From: Bdellovibrio sp. 22V
GTDB lineage: Bacteria; Bdellovibrionota; Bdellovibrionia; Bdellovibrionales; Bdellovibrionaceae
Assembly (NCBI RefSeq): GCF_030169785.1
Contig: NZ_CP125854.1
Span: 1,116,001 to 1,180,000 of the forward strand
DNA length: 64,000 nt
Direction: 5' to 3'
In this document: piece by piece, positions 2,353 to 23,161 of the stretch
Position numbering within the stretch: the first letter of the stretch is position 1
How the letters are laid out: every line of letters begins with the position of its first letter
Made by a program: the position numbers and the translations under genes
Notes under the pieces: generated by a model
What the model was told of the DNA's origin: nothing
Database searches by the model: none
The model's input: only the letters and a program-made list of their open reading frames with translations

Positions 2353-3312
2353 TTAGCGGTACAAATAGGGGAGATAACCGGCCCCTAAAACGCCAGCATG
2401 ATTCTTCGTTTTTGCGATCTCAATCTTGCACTCAAAAGCGGGGTTCATCTGGCGGATCATCGTTTTGTAGTGCGCTTTCATTTCGTTGAAATAAAGATTT
2501 TTGATCTTAATAAGGCCACCGCTCAGGAAAATTTTCTCTAAGTTATAGCCAATAGAAAGATTGTAGCAAAGGCACGCTAAAGCACTGGCCATTTCATTAA
2601 ATAAAACGCCGTACTTCGCATCTTTAGTTTCGATAAGTTCCTCGACAGAATTTCCCTGGAACCCCATTTCTTTCGCGCGACGAAGGAGTCCCGTTCCGGA
2701 GGCAACACCTTCCACCGTGCAGTGGTGGAGTTTGTTGGGTTGGTTCTGCAGTCTTTTGAAATCAACGATCGTGTGACCGTATTCAGAGCCCATTCCGCGG
2801 CTTTGCGCTGGCAAACCGTTGAAGATAACTCCGGAACCGATGCCGGTTCCAACGCTGACGACGGCAAAGGAAGACATCGCTTTAGCTCCGCCGACCCAAC
2901 CTTCCGCAAGGGCCGCCGCTGTAGCGTCATGCTGGAAGTACACTTTGGTTTTAAATCCCTGACGAAGCACTTCTTTTTCCAAAAGGTCGCGGATCGGAAC
3001 GATTTTCCAACCGGGATAATTCACGGGATGAATCAGTTTTCCCTCGGCGGCATTCAAGGGCCCGGCACTAGCCAAGCCAATACCTAAAAAGGTTTTACCG
3101 CTGGTTTCCTTCGGGAATCTCTTTTTGAAATCCAGAGCAATATCGGCCATCAAACCAATCACGCGCTTTTGTGTTTTTGCCGCGGATCCTTCGCGTTTCA
3201 TATCGACGGGCACTTTAATGAAGTCGATCATGTCGCCTTTGTTGGATAAAAGCGCTGCCGCAAGTTTCGTTCCGCCAAGATCAAAGCCGATAGTGTACGT
3301 GGTTTTTTTCAT
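2353..3312 (-). CDS. ROK-family sugar kinase (probable glucokinase)
   Basis: A 319-residue ROK kinase. Residues 8-20 form the phosphate-1 loop (GFDLGGTKLAAAL), and HDATAAALAEG near residue 130 holds the catalytic aspartate of the family's [NH]-D-A-x-A motif. SVGTGIGSG supplies the phosphate-2 region. The zinc-binding Cys cluster of typical ROK proteins is missing; only HHCTVEGVASG remains at that place. As the last gene of the maltodextrin operon it most likely phosphorylates glucose released by amylase and pullulanase products. One base separates it from the alpha-amylase gene. Fructokinase or N-acetylhexosamine kinase activity cannot be excluded. Confidence 0.8.
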   Translation of the reverse strand: MKKTTYTIGFDLGGTKLAAALLSNKGDMIDFIKVPVDMKREGSAAKTQKRVIGLMADIALDFKKRFPKETSGKTFLGIGLASAGPLNAAEGKLIHPVNYPGWKIVPIRDLLEKEVLRQGFKTKVYFQHDATAAALAEGWVGGAKAMSSFAVVSVGTGIGSGVIFNGLPAQSRGMGSEYGHTIVDFKRLQNQPNKLHHCTVEGVASGTGLLRRAKEMGFQGNSVEELIETKDAKYGVLFNEMASALACLCYNLSIGYNLEKIFLSGGLIKIKNLYFNEMKAHYKTMIRQMNPAFECKIEIAKTKNHAGVLGAGYLPYLYR

Positions 3313-3313
3313 A

Positions 3314-4753
3314 TTACTCTAAGATATTTTTTGTCGTTGATTTACGCAAGAAGGCCACCGCCGACATCGCCGGGACCAGGATTCTGACACGGTTGTTGCT
3401 GACACGATAACCTTGCGCACACGTTTTATTTTTAATGTTGTAACCGGAATCCAGGATGTTGCAGTAAATTCCTTCGGGGAGTGTCGTCGAGAAATCCTGC
3501 GTGACGTCCTTATTCGAGAAATTCAAGGCAAGAAATCCGTACGCGCCTCTACTGAAGGAGAGAACGTCGCGACCGTTGCTCCACCAGTTATTTACTGTGA
3601 ACGCTTTGTCTGTTTGATTGCGGAAGTCCACCATCGCTGCGACTTCCGGTAAGCGGTGTTCGCAAGTCCAAGGGGCATGACATTGATTGCTGGCATCTAA
3701 AATAGGAAGTGTTGAATAGTCTGCCGCTAAAGGCGGTCCCTGTTCAGGGTTGTTGAACGCATACCCAGAGTAAAGTTGCGGATAACCAAAGGGCCAGGCC
3801 AGCATGAAGATCTGCGCCAGGCGATACAGGTTTTGTTCCGAACCGTTGTAGCTTAAAATATTTCCAGTGCGCTCAAGATCGTGATTCGTGACGAAAACGA
3901 TTGAGTCAATGCTCGCCGGGAATCCTTGCGCGATATTTTGCAAAGGCTCGGTTTTTTTATCACGGAATCCATACGCCAACACGCGAGGATAGTCATAGGC
4001 CATGACGTCGCCGACCGGAAGATAATCGTTGTACTCAACGGGACCGCGTGGATCGTAAATGACCTCTTGATAGATATAAGCGGAGCGCTTGAGTTTCCAT
4101 TTGATCGCGGCTAAATCCTGCACGGGAATGTGTTTGGCGGCGTCGATACGAAATCCTGTAACACCGAGATCCAGCAGATGATTGAGGTAATCCGCGATTT
4201 TTGTGCGCACGTATTCGGACTCGGTCGCGAGATCGGCAAGATCTAAGAGCTCGCAGTTCTGCAATTCGTAGCGGTCATTGAAATTCGAGATATTGTCGTT
4301 GCCGTTGCGACCGCAGTGATGAAAATCGTTGTAAGAATAAAGACCGGGATACTCATAGTGACTGAATTTTGTTCCCGCATATCCGATGCCGCCGGGAATT
4401 CCTGTAGCATGGTTGATCACGGCATCGACGTAAACGTCGACACCCGCTTGCCGGCAACGGCGAACCATGTCGGCAAATTCCGTTTCATTGCCACTGCGCG
4501 ATTGAATTTTGTAAGACACCACTTGATAGCGTTCCCACCAAGGATTGTCTTGCCATAAGATGTGTTCATGAGGCGGCGAGACCTGAACGGCGGCAAAACC
4601 GGCAGGACCCAAATAAATCTCGCACTCGCGAGCAATATCTTTCCACGGCCATTCAAAAAGATGCACAAAGACCGTGCGCGGGGCCGCGTGCGACTGCAAA
4701 GCCAGAAGCAGAACGAAGAACGGGATTATTCTGGCAAAAAAAGACGTCGGCAT
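3314..4753 (-). CDS. secreted alpha-amylase (GH13)
   Basis: This 479-residue protein has a signal peptide (about residues 1-24) followed by a GH13 TIM barrel that starts TVFVHLFEWPWKDIA, typical of the animal-like alpha-amylase subgroup. All four conserved regions are visible: DAVINH (110-115), GFRIDAAKH with nucleophile Asp204, YIYQEV with acid/base Glu230, and FVTNHD with Asp292. A short all-beta C-terminal domain follows. It hydrolyses internal alpha-1,4 bonds of starch or glycogen, most likely in the periplasm or outside the cell. It lies 8 bp downstream of malK within the maltodextrin operon. Confidence 0.9.
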   Translation of the reverse strand: MPTSFFARIIPFFVLLLALQSHAAPRTVFVHLFEWPWKDIARECEIYLGPAGFAAVQVSPPHEHILWQDNPWWERYQVVSYKIQSRSGNETEFADMVRRCRQAGVDVYVDAVINHATGIPGGIGYAGTKFSHYEYPGLYSYNDFHHCGRNGNDNISNFNDRYELQNCELLDLADLATESEYVRTKIADYLNHLLDLGVTGFRIDAAKHIPVQDLAAIKWKLKRSAYIYQEVIYDPRGPVEYNDYLPVGDVMAYDYPRVLAYGFRDKKTEPLQNIAQGFPASIDSIVFVTNHDLERTGNILSYNGSEQNLYRLAQIFMLAWPFGYPQLYSGYAFNNPEQGPPLAADYSTLPILDASNQCHAPWTCEHRLPEVAAMVDFRNQTDKAFTVNNWWSNGRDVLSFSRGAYGFLALNFSNKDVTQDFSTTLPEGIYCNILDSGYNIKNKTCAQGYRVSNNRVRILVPAMSAVAFLRKSTTKNILE

Positions 4754-4761
4754 CGCAGCTC

Positions 4762-5805
4762 CTAGACGCGTTGATTGAGTCCGGTTTTTTTATCAAAGAG
4801 GTGAGCCTTTGTCAGGTCGATCTTCAGCGTGACCTTTTGATCCTTGGAAAAATTATCCGCTGAATCCACAAGAATTCTGACGTTTTGACCCGCTAAGTTT
4901 CCATGAAGCATTTGCTGCCCGCCAAGATTTTCAGATAGTTCGATCTGATAGCTCCCCAATTCGATTTCATTGGCTGCGAGCGGTCCTTGTGACACCTTTA
5001 GAGCTTCGGGACGCGCCCCTAAAATCTGTCCCGGGACACGAGCTTCCGGCCAAGGAAGTTTTTGCACGGGTTCACCTTCGATGAAATTCATCTCCGGGGA
5101 CCCGATAAAGCTCGCAATAAAAAGATTTTTCGGTTTGTGATAAATCTCGGAAGGCGTTCCGATTTGTTCAATAACACCTTCTTTGAGCACGGCGATACGA
5201 TCGCCCATCGTCGTCGCTTCCATCTGATCGTGAGTCACATAGATCATCGTGCTTTTCAGATTCTGATGCAGACGTTTGATCTCCACACGCATTTGACTGC
5301 GCAGATGCGCATCCAAATTTGAAAGTGGTTCGTCAAAAAGAATAATAGAAGTGCGACGAGCTAAAGCGCGCCCTAAAGCCACGCGCTGGCGTTGCCCGCC
5401 GGAAAGTTCTTTTGGTTTGCGCTGTAAAAGATGATCGATTTGCAAAAGCTGCGCGATTTCTTTTACACGTGATTCAATTTCGGACCCGGAACGTTTTTGT
5501 AACTTCAAAGCAAAGCCCATGTTTTCGGCCACGTTCATGTGCGGATAAAGAGCGTAATTCTGAAACACCATGGCAACGTCGCGGTCCTGCGGTTCGATTT
5601 TGTTGATCGTTTTACCGTCGACTTTGATTTCACCGGCATCCGCTTTTTCCAGACCAGCCAAAGTGCGAAGCAATGTGGATTTGCCGCATCCCGAAGGACC
5701 CACGAGAACCAGAAACTCGCCCGAGGAAATCTGCAAGTCGACGTTCTTTAAGATATGTTGCGGGCCGAAACTTTTAGAGAGCTGAGAGAATTCAATGTGC
5801 GCCAT
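4762..5805 (-). CDS. malK: maltodextrin ABC transporter ATP-binding protein (MalK-type)
   Basis: A 347-residue ABC ATPase of the MalK/UgpC class. Walker A is GPSGCGKST (36-44), the signature motif is LSGGQRQRV (134-142) and Walker B is IILFDEP (154-160), followed by the D-loop and THDQMEA switch histidine. The C-terminal third is the TOBE-type regulatory domain of carbohydrate importers. It would dimerise and power the MalEF/MalG permease. The gene starts 3 bp after malG. The two genes are clearly one transcriptional unit with the rest of the locus, so maltodextrin specificity is inferred from context. Confidence 0.9.
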   Translation of the reverse strand: MAHIEFSQLSKSFGPQHILKNVDLQISSGEFLVLVGPSGCGKSTLLRTLAGLEKADAGEIKVDGKTINKIEPQDRDVAMVFQNYALYPHMNVAENMGFALKLQKRSGSEIESRVKEIAQLLQIDHLLQRKPKELSGGQRQRVALGRALARRTSIILFDEPLSNLDAHLRSQMRVEIKRLHQNLKSTMIYVTHDQMEATTMGDRIAVLKEGVIEQIGTPSEIYHKPKNLFIASFIGSPEMNFIEGEPVQKLPWPEARVPGQILGARPEALKVSQGPLAANEIELGSYQIELSENLGGQQMLHGNLAGQNVRILVDSADNFSKDQKVTLKIDLTKAHLFDKKTGLNQRV

Positions 5806-5808
5806 AAA

Positions 5809-6627
5809 CTATCCTTTCACGCTTCCCATCGTCAGACCGGAAACCAAATAACGTGAAATACTGATGAATAAAATCAAAACGGGAATGCTTACGATCAATG
5901 CTCCCGCTGCATACAAACCCCATTGCGTCGCGAGGCTGGCTTGAAACGAGCGCAGGCCCAGCGGCAAAGTGTAAAGCTGCGGGTCTTGCAAAACGACGGC
6001 GGCGATAACGTACTCGCTCCAACTTGTCATGAAACTGAAAAGAGCGGTGATAACCAAAGCTGGTGAAGACACCGGCAGAATGATTTTATAAAAAGTTTTC
6101 CATGGAGAACAACCGTCTAATAGCGCCGCTTCTTCGAGTTCTTTAGGAATCGTGTCGTAGTACGCCTTCATCTGCCACACGCAGAAAGGCAGAGCCGTTG
6201 AGGAGTATATAATGAAAAGTCCCCAGAAGCTGTCGATCAAACGCAATTTAGAGAGAATAATGTAAAACGGAAGGATCAACATCGTGGCCGGAAACATCTG
6301 CGTCGCCAGCAAAGAGAACAGCATCATGTTGCGGCCGCGGAACTGATAGCGTGACAAAGCATAAGCGCTTGTCGACGCGAACGCGACACCCAAAAGAGTT
6401 GTCATCGTCGCGACTAATAAAGAGTTGCGCATCCACAAAATAAAATCGGTATTAACGAAGAGATCTATAAAATTCTTTACGGTGGAGGTGCTTGTAAAGA
6501 TCTCCAGTGAATGGGACTGGAAAGCATTATCACCGCGTAAAGAAACGGAAAGCACGTACAACATCGGATAGATGGAAAACACCGCAAAAAGAAGAATGCT
6601 TAGCCAAGCGAGAGTTTTTTTGATCAT
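5809..6627 (-). CDS. malG: maltodextrin ABC transporter permease (MalG-type)
   Basis: A 272-residue inner-membrane protein with about six transmembrane helices and the EAA coupling motif (EEAALLDGCSPWKTFYKIIL) that docks on MalK. I chose the ATG at 6627 because the protein then begins MIKKTLAWLSILLF, as MalG homologues do, and because it overlaps the malEF stop as ATGA. A longer reading frame upstream is only out-of-frame sequence of malEF. It pairs with the MalF half of the fusion gene upstream to form the translocation pore. Confidence 0.9.
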   Translation of the reverse strand: MIKKTLAWLSILLFAVFSIYPMLYVLSVSLRGDNAFQSHSLEIFTSTSTVKNFIDLFVNTDFILWMRNSLLVATMTTLLGVAFASTSAYALSRYQFRGRNMMLFSLLATQMFPATMLILPFYIILSKLRLIDSFWGLFIIYSSTALPFCVWQMKAYYDTIPKELEEAALLDGCSPWKTFYKIILPVSSPALVITALFSFMTSWSEYVIAAVVLQDPQLYTLPLGLRSFQASLATQWGLYAAGALIVSIPVLILFISISRYLVSGLTMGSVKG

Positions 6628-19683: not shown

Positions 19684-22422
19684 ATGAATAAAAAGATTCT
19701 CTTAGTAGCATTAGGATTGTGCGCGCTGACGGCGGGTTGTTCGAAATCGCCGGAAGCAGGCGGGGAGCTCGAATTGACGAGTGGTAATTCAGCTCTGAGC
19801 TGCACGCCCGGTTCTGAAAAAGTAGGGACGGAGGGCTTGAGTATTCAAGGAAACTCTGTCAGTCAGGCTGGTGAATCCGTCTCATACAGACTTAATAAGT
19901 CTTTAAGCTGTGATGGAAATCAACAGGTCGTATGGAAAACAGTTGGTGGCAGCACTTATACTGCAACCAGCGTGAACTCCACATTTAATAAAGCTGGAAC
20001 ATATATAGTAACAGCGAAGATTGAGGACGGAGCCTCTTCTTCTCAAGAAGTTGCTATGATGACAACAGTCGTATCGGATGAGGTTGTTGTATCAGGTCCG
20101 CAAGTGGGCGTGGTCAACGAACCTGTCTCTTTACAATTGGCTGTTCCAAGCCACGTCACCTTATATAGAGCCATTTGGAACTTTGGAGACGGATCTCCAA
20201 CTGAGACGACGCTGCAGCCGGTGCAACACACGTTTACCGCTGTGGGAACATATCAGGTGAAAGTTGAAATTGCCGGTGACTACGGTAACGAAAAAGTTTT
20301 GACTCACACAATTGAAATCACAGAAGCACCTGTGGAAAATTGTACGATGGCGGCAGCGATCTCGGGTCCTTCTGAAGCGAAGGTGGATTCTCCGATCGCA
20401 TTGTCTATTTATATGCCACAGTGTTTGGCTGATAAAGTGACTTCGATTAAATGGACGATGGGTGACGGTGGCACGGCTTCAGGCCAATCCATCCAACACA
20501 CTTATGGTGCGAAGGGGACATACGCGGTTGAGGCTGTGTTGTACTCTTCAGACAAAGCTCTTTTCACGTTGGAACATTCAGTTCTTGTAACTGAAAAAAC
20601 AACGGAGCCAGAACCAGAGCCCACGCCAACACCGACACCTGAACCTCTTGCGTGTTCAGTTGCGGGTCAGACTCGTGAATCTCATGGTGAAATTTACTCT
20701 GAGACAGCGTCTTGCGGTATCGACGGAACGAAAGAGATGTCTTACCGCGATCTTATTAAAGAAGAATGTAAGCTTGTAGGCGAAACGTTGAAATGGGTTG
20801 AAGTTTCTCGAACAAAAGAAACGACTCATGAAGGAACTTGTGAAGGCCAATCTTGCCGTTTGCCTGATGGAACGATCGTGCCTAATGGAACTTCGCATGT
20901 CCTTTATTCAACGCAAACTCCTGCGGGAAGTTGTGCGACAGTAAGCCAAACACGCGTATGTACGAACGGTGTCCTTTCGGGATCTGAGTCTTACAATCAA
21001 AGATCTTGTCATAATGGTTGTGGTGACTTCGGTTCTCATGGAACGGTGAAAACAAACGTCGTGACTGGTGAAATCAGCATCGCGAAAACTTGTGCTTACG
21101 GTGAAACTGGTATCTTTGATATCTTTGAGCAAGTGTCTGATCAAGCCTGTGTTGAAGGCCAGATTGTGACCTCAAACACTCACCAAGGAAATATCAAAAC
21201 TCCAGGTGTATGTCCTACTTATAAATATGCTCCGACAGATAACTTCACAGCTTGTTCTGCAGACTGCGGAGGCAAACAATCACGTATCTTCGTTTGCGTG
21301 GACGATAAAGGGACGCAAGTCGATGCCGCTCGTTGTGCGGGACTTGCATATCCAATCGAAGAACGCCTTTGTGACGGAAATCCAGAAGCGGTTCGCCGCC
21401 AAGAGTCCTCTGTTGCGATCGAAGAAGCAAACAGCTCGCAAACATGCCCTGCCAACCAAATCGGTGTGGTTGTGAACAAACGCGAAGTAACGACAGTGAA
21501 AACTTATGCATGTATTGATCACCAAGTGCAACTCGAGGGACAAAACGTGATCTACGGTGCTTGGGTCTCTGAAAGTTACTGCCGTGACTACGTGGCACAC
21601 AGATGTTCACACGACAGCTTGAGCAACTCTGAAGCGCAAGGCCGCTATGAATGGATGGTGAAGTGTCAGGATCAATTGCCAATCATCAAAGAATTCCTAG
21701 TGTACTTCGAAGATGTTCAGAAGAAAAAAGGCAACACGTCTTACGCTTTGGATTCCAAAGGTCAGCACTTGTATCCAAGCTTCATGAACCGCGCGACGGT
21801 GCCAGAAAAACCTTGGATTGCGCCTAAGAAGAAAAGCGCTCCTTGTGAAATGCCAAGCACGGTTTACGTAGCGACAGTGTGTGTGTCTTCATGCGCGACA
21901 CCTGAACAGCAAATACTTGCTCAGGCAGAGGGCTCAGGTAAGTTGCAATACGTTCCGTTTGTTGAGGCTTTGACGAAGAACTATATGTTCGTGGCGTCAC
22001 TACAAAGCGCTCAATCAATGGGCAGCAAAGACGTTCAGAAAACGAGAGTGGATCAATGGGTGACAGAGCTTATCGACAGTGAACATGACATCCTTGTTTT
22101 CAAAATGAAGTCGGGTCGTGAGTTGCGAGTGACTCCAAACCATCCTCTCGTGGCTTCGAACGGATTTATGAGACTTTCGCAAGAGTTCAAAGTAGGTGAT
22201 GATCTTGTCCAAGTCGGCGGCATCTTGGATCCGATTGTGTCGATCACTCCTATCAAGTACTTCGGTAAGGTTTACAACGTGTATGTGAAATCCAATGCGA
22301 TTCATCACAACATCATCGTCCTTAACGGCTACTTGAACGGTTCCGCATACTTCCAAAATGCGGGCGCGAAAGATCTGAATCGTTCACTCTTTAGAAAAAC
22401 TCTGACACGCGGAGCTTTCTAA
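19684..22422 (+). CDS. lipoprotein with PKD-like domains, TSP1-like module and C-terminal Hint domain
   Basis: 912 residues. A lipoprotein signal ends in LTAGC (Cys19). Ig/PKD-like domains lie at about 45-130, 135-215 (WNFGDGS, then GTYQVKVEI) and 220-303 (WTMGDGG, GTYAVEAVL). A Pro/Glu/Thr linker (308-321) leads to a long Cys-rich region, in which 515-565 (FTACSADCGGKQSRIFVC) resembles a thrombospondin type 1 repeat. From Cys733/Cys737 onward the chain looks like a Hint (intein/hedgehog) domain: CATPEQQI, TPNHPLVASNGF (817-828) and HHNIIVLNGYLNGS (874-887). The last block lacks the usual terminal His-Asn. It is probably a surface protein that processes itself or retains a broken Hint fold. 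Confidence 0.7.
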   Translation: MNKKILLVALGLCALTAGCSKSPEAGGELELTSGNSALSCTPGSEKVGTEGLSIQGNSVSQAGESVSYRLNKSLSCDGNQQVVWKTVGGSTYTATSVNSTFNKAGTYIVTAKIEDGASSSQEVAMMTTVVSDEVVVSGPQVGVVNEPVSLQLAVPSHVTLYRAIWNFGDGSPTETTLQPVQHTFTAVGTYQVKVEIAGDYGNEKVLTHTIEITEAPVENCTMAAAISGPSEAKVDSPIALSIYMPQCLADKVTSIKWTMGDGGTASGQSIQHTYGAKGTYAVEAVLYSSDKALFTLEHSVLVTEKTTEPEPEPTPTPTPEPLACSVAGQTRESHGEIYSETASCGIDGTKEMSYRDLIKEECKLVGETLKWVEVSRTKETTHEGTCEGQSCRLPDGTIVPNGTSHVLYSTQTPAGSCATVSQTRVCTNGVLSGSESYNQRSCHNGCGDFGSHGTVKTNVVTGEISIAKTCAYGETGIFDIFEQVSDQACVEGQIVTSNTHQGNIKTPGVCPTYKYAPTDNFTACSADCGGKQSRIFVCVDDKGTQVDAARCAGLAYPIEERLCDGNPEAVRRQESSVAIEEANSSQTCPANQIGVVVNKREVTTVKTYACIDHQVQLEGQNVIYGAWVSESYCRDYVAHRCSHDSLSNSEAQGRYEWMVKCQDQLPIIKEFLVYFEDVQKKKGNTSYALDSKGQHLYPSFMNRATVPEKPWIAPKKKSAPCEMPSTVYVATVCVSSCATPEQQILAQAEGSGKLQYVPFVEALTKNYMFVASLQSAQSMGSKDVQKTRVDQWVTELIDSEHDILVFKMKSGRELRVTPNHPLVASNGFMRLSQEFKVGDDLVQVGGILDPIVSITPIKYFGKVYNVYVKSNAIHHNIIVLNGYLNGSAYFQNAGAKDLNRSLFRKTLTRGAF

Positions 22423-22423
22423 G

Positions 22424-23161
22424 ATGACGACAAAGGTGAAACTCGGTCTTGTATTAGGAATGATAGTTATTGTTGGGGGAGTCATGCTGGTCATGACTTC
22501 CTCTCAGTCTGAAAAAGTGGAAGAGGCACCAACGCAAGAAACCGGTGTCGGCGAAACGGAAGTGATGGAAGCGAAAGCCCCGTCACCCGCGGCGCCAGCA
22601 GTGAAGGCCCCGGTAGTTCAAGCAGGGAAAAAATCCGTGGCCGAGACCAAAGCTTTGTTAGACAAAGCCGATGTCGTCTTTCGGGATTTTCCATATAAAA
22701 AAGATCTTGAAGAGTATAAAAAGATTCATACGAAAGTTTTCTTAACTCCAGAAGAACGCAATTTCCGCAAAGATCTGCTTAATAACCACCGTGCGATCGC
22801 GAGCATGAAGGATCTGCTTTTAGTTCCTGCGACAAAACCAGATCAAGAGTCCATGCAAAACGCAGCCTTGGATTTGCTTTTGGAAGGCTTGCAGAAATCA
22901 GCGAATAGTGAGGCCGCGCAAGTCCTAAAGGATGTTGTGGCCGATTCTGCCGTCGAGGACAACAAAGTCGATGCGGATATTCGTAAATCTTTAGGCGGAA
23001 TCAAGGGCGAGATTCTGTATCAGTGGAGTTCACTCTACCCACAAAGCCAGGGCGATCTAGAAAGAATGCTGCCTGGTCCGTCCTCTCAAAAAATTTGGGC
23101 CAATGTTAAAGCCCAACAAGAAAGCAATCTCGCCGAATCGGCCTTTGAAGCCGGAAAATAA
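22424..23161 (+). CDS. membrane-anchored hypothetical protein, partner of the Hint lipoprotein
   Basis: 245 residues with one N-terminal transmembrane helix (about 7-26, GLVLGMIVIVGGVMLVM), a Glu/Pro/Ala-rich linker to about residue 70, and a helical C-terminal domain rich in Lys and Asp. I recognise no family. The ATG follows the stop of the PKD/Hint lipoprotein gene after one base, so the two are almost certainly translated from one mRNA, and a shared periplasmic role is inferred. A strong terminator follows. Confidence 0.65.
   Translation: MTTKVKLGLVLGMIVIVGGVMLVMTSSQSEKVEEAPTQETGVGETEVMEAKAPSPAAPAVKAPVVQAGKKSVAETKALLDKADVVFRDFPYKKDLEEYKKIHTKVFLTPEERNFRKDLLNNHRAIASMKDLLLVPATKPDQESMQNAALDLLLEGLQKSANSEAAQVLKDVVADSAVEDNKVDADIRKSLGGIKGEILYQWSSLYPQSQGDLERMLPGPSSQKIWANVKAQQESNLAESAFEAGK

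What the first reader, a model, noticed from the sequence alone, without database searches (positions are those of the whole stretch)
19684..22422. Lipoprotein that ends in a Hint (intein/hedgehog-like) domain with a broken C-terminal junction
The C-terminal 180 residues show Hint blocks (Cys737 start, TPNHPLV at 817-823, then a final strand pair), but where self-splicing proteins have Val-His-Asn the chain reads LNGYLNGS and then continues to its end. The N-terminal half carries PKD-like and thrombospondin-like modules on a lipid anchor. A surface protein that can cleave at the Hint N-side Cys and attach its N-part to a nucleophile, as hedgehog does, would be a new kind of surface event in predatory bacteria.
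Basis: partly seen in the sequence, partly recalled or inferred. Interest (0 to 1): 0.75.

Follow-up and report, generated by a model that had tools for sequence, protein, structure and literature searches.

The report
Self-cleaving Hint lipoprotein, Bd2400 ortholog
This Bdellovibrio surface lipoprotein ends in a real intein/hedgehog-type self-cleaving domain, but it is the counterpart of Bd2400, a protein already described in 2009 as the founder of the "C-type bacterial intein-like" family; what is added here is a strictly linked partner gene, a split version of the system across the phylum, and the pattern of conserved residues that points to one-sided, hedgehog-like cleavage.

Summary
Window 19684-22422 (+) encodes a 912-aa lipoprotein: signal peptide with lipobox, PKD repeats, Cys-rich/TSP1-like region, then residues 737-888 with the Hint fold (VIA Z 17.3 to BIL2 and 15.9 to Drosophila hedgehog 1at0; Cys737 superposes on intein residue 1 and hedgehog Cys258). 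The C-side junction is not "broken": in every relative the penultimate-His position is Gly886 and the terminal-Asn position is Ser/Thr/Asp (Ala once), followed by a conserved 24-residue tail. N-side thioester chemistry is predicted without splicing, as in hedgehog.

It is not new in kind. Published bd2400 qPCR primers match the ortholog exactly at the Cys737 region. Bd2400 is the founding C-type BIL (Dori-Bachash 2009; I recall in-vitro N-side cleavage and in-vivo processing, but could not read the paper here).

Additions: (1) the adjoining downstream gene 22424-23161 is the only conserved neighbour and was never found without the Hint gene. (2) Across the phylum the Hint part is usually a small secreted protein, often beside a separate lipoprotein (subtilase where tested) and the partner; here lipoprotein and Hint are fused. 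(3) Mature Cys number is odd in 52 of 57 relatives, even in the only natural Cys737 mutant. What captures the thioester is unknown.

The parts
19684..22422 (+). Whole gene: 912-aa lipoprotein with C-terminal C-type BIL (Hint) domain; Bd2400 ortholog
19684..19740 (+). Signal peptide and lipobox LTAGC (lipidated Cys19)
   Evidence: sequence; Cys19 conserved in all 19 aligned orthologs
19849..20598 (+). PKD repeats, residues about 56-305; fastest-diverging part (16-47% identity to distant orthologs)
   Evidence: Pfam PF18911/PF00801, three stretches; per-domain identity
20653..21579 (+). Cys-rich region, residues about 324-632, with TSP1-like stretch 519-564
   Evidence: TSP1_ADAMTS 22.1 bits, cut-off 23.8; invariant Cys
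21580..21891 (+). PPS-1-like region just upstream of the Hint, residues about 633-736 (RC-x2-DSL ... R-x2-W-x2-KC motif; C721, C733)
   Evidence: conserved across the phylum; PPS-1 is named as the C-type BIL companion in PMC9185962, equating it with this region is inference
21892..22347 (+). Hint (C-type BIL) domain, residues 737-888
21892..21894 (+). Cys737, predicted N-S acyl-shift nucleophile; scissile bond Ser736-Cys737
   Evidence: aligned to intein residue 1 / hedgehog 258; kept in 57 of 58 relatives
22132..22143 (+). Block B TxxH (T817-P-N-H820)
   Evidence: H820 in every relative compared, T817 T/S
22339..22347 (+). G886-S887-A888 where inteins have His-Asn and the +1 nucleophile
22348..22419 (+). 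24-residue post-Hint tail (Q...NR..LR/FR), conserved across the family; predicted helix 889-907
22424..23161 (+). Partner gene: 245-aa protein with N-terminal membrane segment, Pro-rich linker, no Cys; starts 1 nt after the BIL stop codon

Best explanation
The gene encodes a C-type bacterial intein-like (BIL) lipoprotein, the ortholog of Bd2400. After export and lipidation, the PKD/Cys-rich arm and PPS-1 region fold with their disulfides; the one cysteine left unpaired, Cys737, attacks the Ser736-Cys737 bond with help from the block B TxxH motif to form a thioester. Because the His-Asn end and the +1 nucleophile are absent, nothing can be spliced. The thioester is resolved by an outside nucleophile (water or a small acceptor), separating an about 77-kDa lipid-anchored arm (residues 19-736) from an about 20-kDa Hint-plus-tail fragment (737-912). 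The adjoining downstream membrane-anchored protein is a dedicated helper. Shown: fold, residue positions, conservation, linkage, identity with the Bd2400 family. Inferred: cleavage in this organism, identity of the nucleophile, role of the tail and of the partner.
For: Hint fold with Cys737 on intein residue 1 and hedgehog Cys258. Cys737 kept in 57 of 58 relatives, H820 invariant, Gly886 and Ser/Thr/Asp887 (one Ala) in place of His-Asn. Mature Cys number odd in 52 of 57 relatives with Cys737 (14 of 14 short forms under 330 aa of the main type have exactly five), even (22) in the only Cys737 mutant. Published bd2400 primers (PMC11271337) lie exactly in the ortholog just after the Cys737 codon, 122 bp apart. 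C-type BIL with PPS-1 in Bdellovibrio: PMC9185962, title and citation in PMC2797640. Partner gene: only conserved neighbour, usually overlapping or within a few bases; present in 21 of the 22 genomes that have the Hint gene and in none of the other 44 of 66. From memory, not readable here: Dori-Bachash 2009 reports in-vitro autocatalytic N-side cleavage and in-vivo processing of Bd2400.
Against: No processing was or could be measured here. Sequence scores to curated Hint models are near their cut-offs. Cys733 sits four residues before Cys737 and could form a disulfide with it, blocking activity; parity alone does not settle which Cys is free. Five relatives with Cys737 have an even Cys number (L048, L120, L122, L141, L142). 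The Hint model has modest confidence (mean pLDDT 65; low in the tail, and low at 737-740 in the full-length model).
Confidence: 0.8

Rival explanations
1. Hedgehog-like ligation: the thioester at Ser736 is passed to a specific acceptor (lipid, glycan, peptidoglycan amine, or the partner protein), with the conserved tail acting as an adduct-recognition region.
For: Same layout as hedgehog (exported N-part, Hint, short C-terminal extension); no C-junction chemistry; tail conserved throughout the family; in most of the phylum the protein is just signal peptide + about 100-aa domain + Hint.
Against: No acceptor is known; the tail is only 24 residues and not modelled confidently; plain hydrolysis explains the same sequence features.
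Confidence: 0.25
2. Redox-gated BIL: Cys733 and Cys737 form a disulfide in the oxidising periplasm that holds the domain inactive until the protein meets a reducing environment (for example the prey).
For: Cys733 is nearly as conserved as Cys737 (only L141 lacks it) and lies at -4; intein redox traps have a solved example among the structural hits (3nzm).
Against: Spacing of the five Cys in the short forms suits C641-C661 and C721-C733 pairs; the Cys737 mutant L062 keeps both C721 and C733.
Confidence: 0.15
3. A Hint fold kept as a structural or binding module, not catalytically active.
For: One relative (L062/L148) lost Cys737 but keeps the rest of the domain and its partner gene.
Against: 57 of 58 relatives keep Cys737 and TxxH is kept throughout; remembered in-vitro activity of Bd2400.
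Confidence: 0.07

Closest known systems
C-type BIL domains, Bd2400 of Bdellovibrio bacteriovorus (Dori-Bachash et al. 2009, pmid 19153786)
   Same: Same family and gene: published bd2400 primers match the ortholog exactly; PKD domains, upstream PPS-1-like region, C-terminal Hint, predator.
   Different: The window's copy is 55% identical over the whole protein and comes from another species of the genus; the partner gene and the split subtilase-lipoprotein arrangement were not found in any held text.
Hedgehog Hog/Hint domain (1at0)
   Same: Fold, N-side Cys, block B TxxH, no His-Asn-Cys end, C-terminal extension (for the fold; rest from general knowledge of hedgehog).
   Different: No Hedge domain, tail of 24 residues instead of a sterol recognition region; cholesterol is not a usual bacterial product (general knowledge).
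Class 1 inteins (Pho RadA, Npu DnaE, Mtu RecA)
   Same: Fold, Cys1, block B.
   Different: No terminal His-Asn, no +1 nucleophile, no C-extein host protein; splicing not expected by the standard route.
[quoted passage not shown]
   Same: Hint fold in secreted variable bacterial proteins.
   Different: A-type ends in His-Asn; here Gly-Ser/Thr/Asp followed by a conserved tail.
Secreted bacterial Hint-like proteins with two conserved upstream Cys (Buerglin 2008, PMC2362128)
   Same: Signal peptide, short N-part, C-terminal Hint, Myxococcus/Stigmatella members; possibly the same family.
   Different: Sequences not compared here; short forms here have four conserved upstream Cys.

Membership tests
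HINT superfamily | Hint fold | tested here: met
   55 Foldseek hits E<=1e-3, the 50 listed all Hint proteins; Z 17.3 / 15.9 over 142 / 135 residues
HINT superfamily | Nucleophile at position 1 and block B TxxH | tested here: met
   Cys737 superposed on residue 1; T817/H820 conserved
C-type BIL | Orthology with Bd2400 | tested here: met
   bd2400 primers match ortholog L027 exactly; L027 is a full-length homolog of the window protein, 55% identical
C-type BIL | PPS-1 domain immediately upstream | tested here: inconclusive
   a conserved domain is there and PPS-1 is named in PMC9185962; the PPS-1 sequence definition was not readable
C-type BIL | Autocatalytic N-side cleavage | not testable with these tools
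   needs protein chemistry
Class 1 intein | C-terminal His-Asn and +1 Cys/Ser/Thr | tested here: not met
   G886-S887-A888 at the superposed positions, conserved in relatives
A-type BIL | C-terminal His-Asn | tested here: not met
Hedgehog / Hog | Hedge signalling domain upstream | tested here: not met
   N-part is PKD + Cys-rich; no Hedge match in Pfam
Hedgehog / Hog | Catalytic Asp for sterol activation (Drosophila D303) | tested here: inconclusive
   D798 is D/E in the aligned orthologs but DnaE-type inteins also have Asp near there; residue-level superposition not available
Hedgehog / Hog | Transfer of the N-part to a sterol or other adduct | not testable with these tools
   needs mass spectrometry

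The most novel reading that the evidence does not exclude
A phylum-wide bacterial hedgehog-like ligation system: the Hint domain activates the C-terminus of the PPS-1/lipoprotein part and, with the linked membrane-anchored partner (and the separate lipoprotein in the split form), attaches it covalently to an acceptor on the predator's or prey's envelope, using the tail as the acceptor-recognition element.
Probability: 0.18. Interest if true: 0.75.

Novelty: new member of a known kind. Interest (0 to 1): 0.42.

Why it matters
It ties an orphan observation to an already described family. The strict partner gene, the split/fused layouts and the five-cysteine minimal form give concrete handles on the open question of what C-type BILs do: the 30-kDa short forms are simple enough to express and test for a thioester-derived adduct.

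Tried and rejected
Intein insertion (a host protein interrupted by an intein): rejected, no C-extein and no His-Asn end. Decayed junction: rejected, conserved family-wide. Paralogs in the same genome: none found; a weak second hit in G000 (L016) has six in-frame stops. Viral origin: no match in viral contigs. Domain assignment of the partner: no Pfam family. The subtilase lipoprotein of the split form is not part of the window's locus. The primary 2009 paper is not held. Disulfide distances could not be measured because model coordinates are not exposed. A plasmid search failed on a frame error and was not repeated. An NCBIfam scan of split-form proteins failed on a frame error and was not repeated. 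Promoter and terminator scans gave no more sites than shuffles. A PDB sequence search with the fourth gene of the split loci found nothing.

Full report
OBSERVATION. The ORF is real and at the stated coordinates: 912 aa with lipobox LTAGC19. Pfam gives PKD (E 6.6e-26, three stretches) and a sub-threshold TSP1_ADAMTS at 519-564. Hint models are hit weakly by sequence: TIGR01445 from residue 737 exactly, E 1.6e-4; Pho RadA intein E 8.1e-5. An AlphaFold model of residues 685-912 from 12 sequences (mean pLDDT 65) retrieves inteins, hedgehog and BIL domains: 55 Foldseek hits at E<=1e-3, of which the 50 listed are all Hint proteins; VIA Z 17.3 with BIL2 6y75 and 15.9 with 1at0. In that superposition model residue 53 = Cys737 falls on intein residue 1 and hedgehog 258, and model residue 203 = Ser887 on the intein terminal Asn.

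FAMILY. The protein occurs in 14 of 24 genomes of the genus and 22 of 66 of the family (three further hits, in G000, G010 and G025, are weak and not counted), one clear copy each. A named relative is Bdellovibrio bacteriovorus strain kdesi (L051). PPS-1, Hint and tail are the best conserved parts (PPS-1 and Hint 51-70% identity, tail 46-62%, where PKD repeats are 16-47%, comparisons L026, L042, L047). A profile of the C-terminal part finds the domain in 63 of 369 genomes of the phylum, the weakest hits being doubtful. Outside the family many members are short secreted proteins of 260-450 aa: signal peptide, an about 100-aa domain with the motif RC..DSL....R..W..KC, then Hint and a ..NR..LR tail.

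WHY ONE-SIDED CLEAVAGE. Over 58 distinct relatives Cys737 is kept in 57 (the exception, L062/L148, has Gly); block B Thr/Ser and His are kept throughout; the His-Asn positions are Gly and Ser/Thr/Asp (Ala once), never Asn. All 14 short forms under 330 aa of the main type have exactly five cysteines (the C641, C661, C721, C733, C737 equivalents) and three of a sub-type have seven. Counting mature Cys (with two hand corrections for the lipid Cys: L022 29, L142 54), 52 of 57 relatives with Cys737 have an odd number; the Cys737-less one has 22. This fits disulfide pairing of everything except one nucleophile. It is inference, relatives are not independent, and five exceptions exist (L048, L120, L122, L141, L142).

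CONTEXT. Of 16 window genes around it only the next one, 22424-23161, is regularly found with it: its start overlaps or follows the Hint stop by a few bases in nearly all long-form loci. It has an N-terminal membrane segment, a Pro-rich linker and no Cys, and matches no Pfam family. In 66 genomes it is found in 21 of 22 with the Hint gene and in none without; G040, the apparent exception by BLAST, has a similar-looking ORF in place. In short-form loci the order is often PPS-1-Hint, then a separate 400-700-aa lipoprotein, then the partner; two of these lipoproteins were tested and are subtilases (Pfam S8, E 2.6e-18 and 5.9e-16). In L121/L122 a partner-like stretch is fused behind the Hint tail (weak: i-E 1.6e-6 and 1.7e-4 in a small set). 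The window's protein thus looks like a fused version of components that are separate elsewhere, though its own lipoprotein arm is PKD/Cys-rich and not a subtilase.

WHAT IS KNOWN. Primers published for bd2400 (PMC11271337) match ortholog L027 exactly, 122 bp apart, starting at the codons for ATPEQQI just after Cys737. Bd2400 is the subject of Dori-Bachash et al. [quoted passage not shown] that the paper's protein is Bd2400 is from memory). C-type BILs with PPS-1 are summarised in PMC9185962. [quoted passage not shown] From memory only, the 2009 abstract reports in-vitro autocatalytic N-side cleavage, secretion and life-cycle-dependent processing.

VERDICT. Real, correctly read in anatomy, not new in kind. 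The fate of the thioester remains open; hydrolysis is the default, ligation possible.

Noticed in passing
L062 / L148, C-terminal part: Natural variant of the family with Gly in place of Cys737 (CLSGGSTPE) that keeps the rest of the domain and the partner gene; its mature Cys number is even.
   Followed up: partly
L121 1312-2622, L122 4173-5477 (+): Short-form Hint proteins with an extra C-terminal stretch that weakly matches the partner-protein profile, a possible fusion of the two genes.
   Followed up: partly
L117, L123, L125, L131, L133-L135, L138, L139, gene after the partner: A fourth conserved gene: about 420-aa conserved N-domain (alignment A4), followed by LRR and Kelch repeats where long enough; no informative Pfam match for the N-domain, and it occurs in a few Bdellovibrio genomes away from the Hint gene.
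   Followed up: partly
L133, L134, L135, separate lipoprotein: By eye, the subtilase GTSxA motif looks degenerate in these relatives, so the S8 domain may be inactive there.
   Followed up: no
L146 (G010) 3220-6378 (+): A second, distant Hint-like C-terminus on a 1053-aa protein (ends VYNLVLDSSSDGYIANNVRVLSYPK; E 7.3e-5).
   Followed up: no
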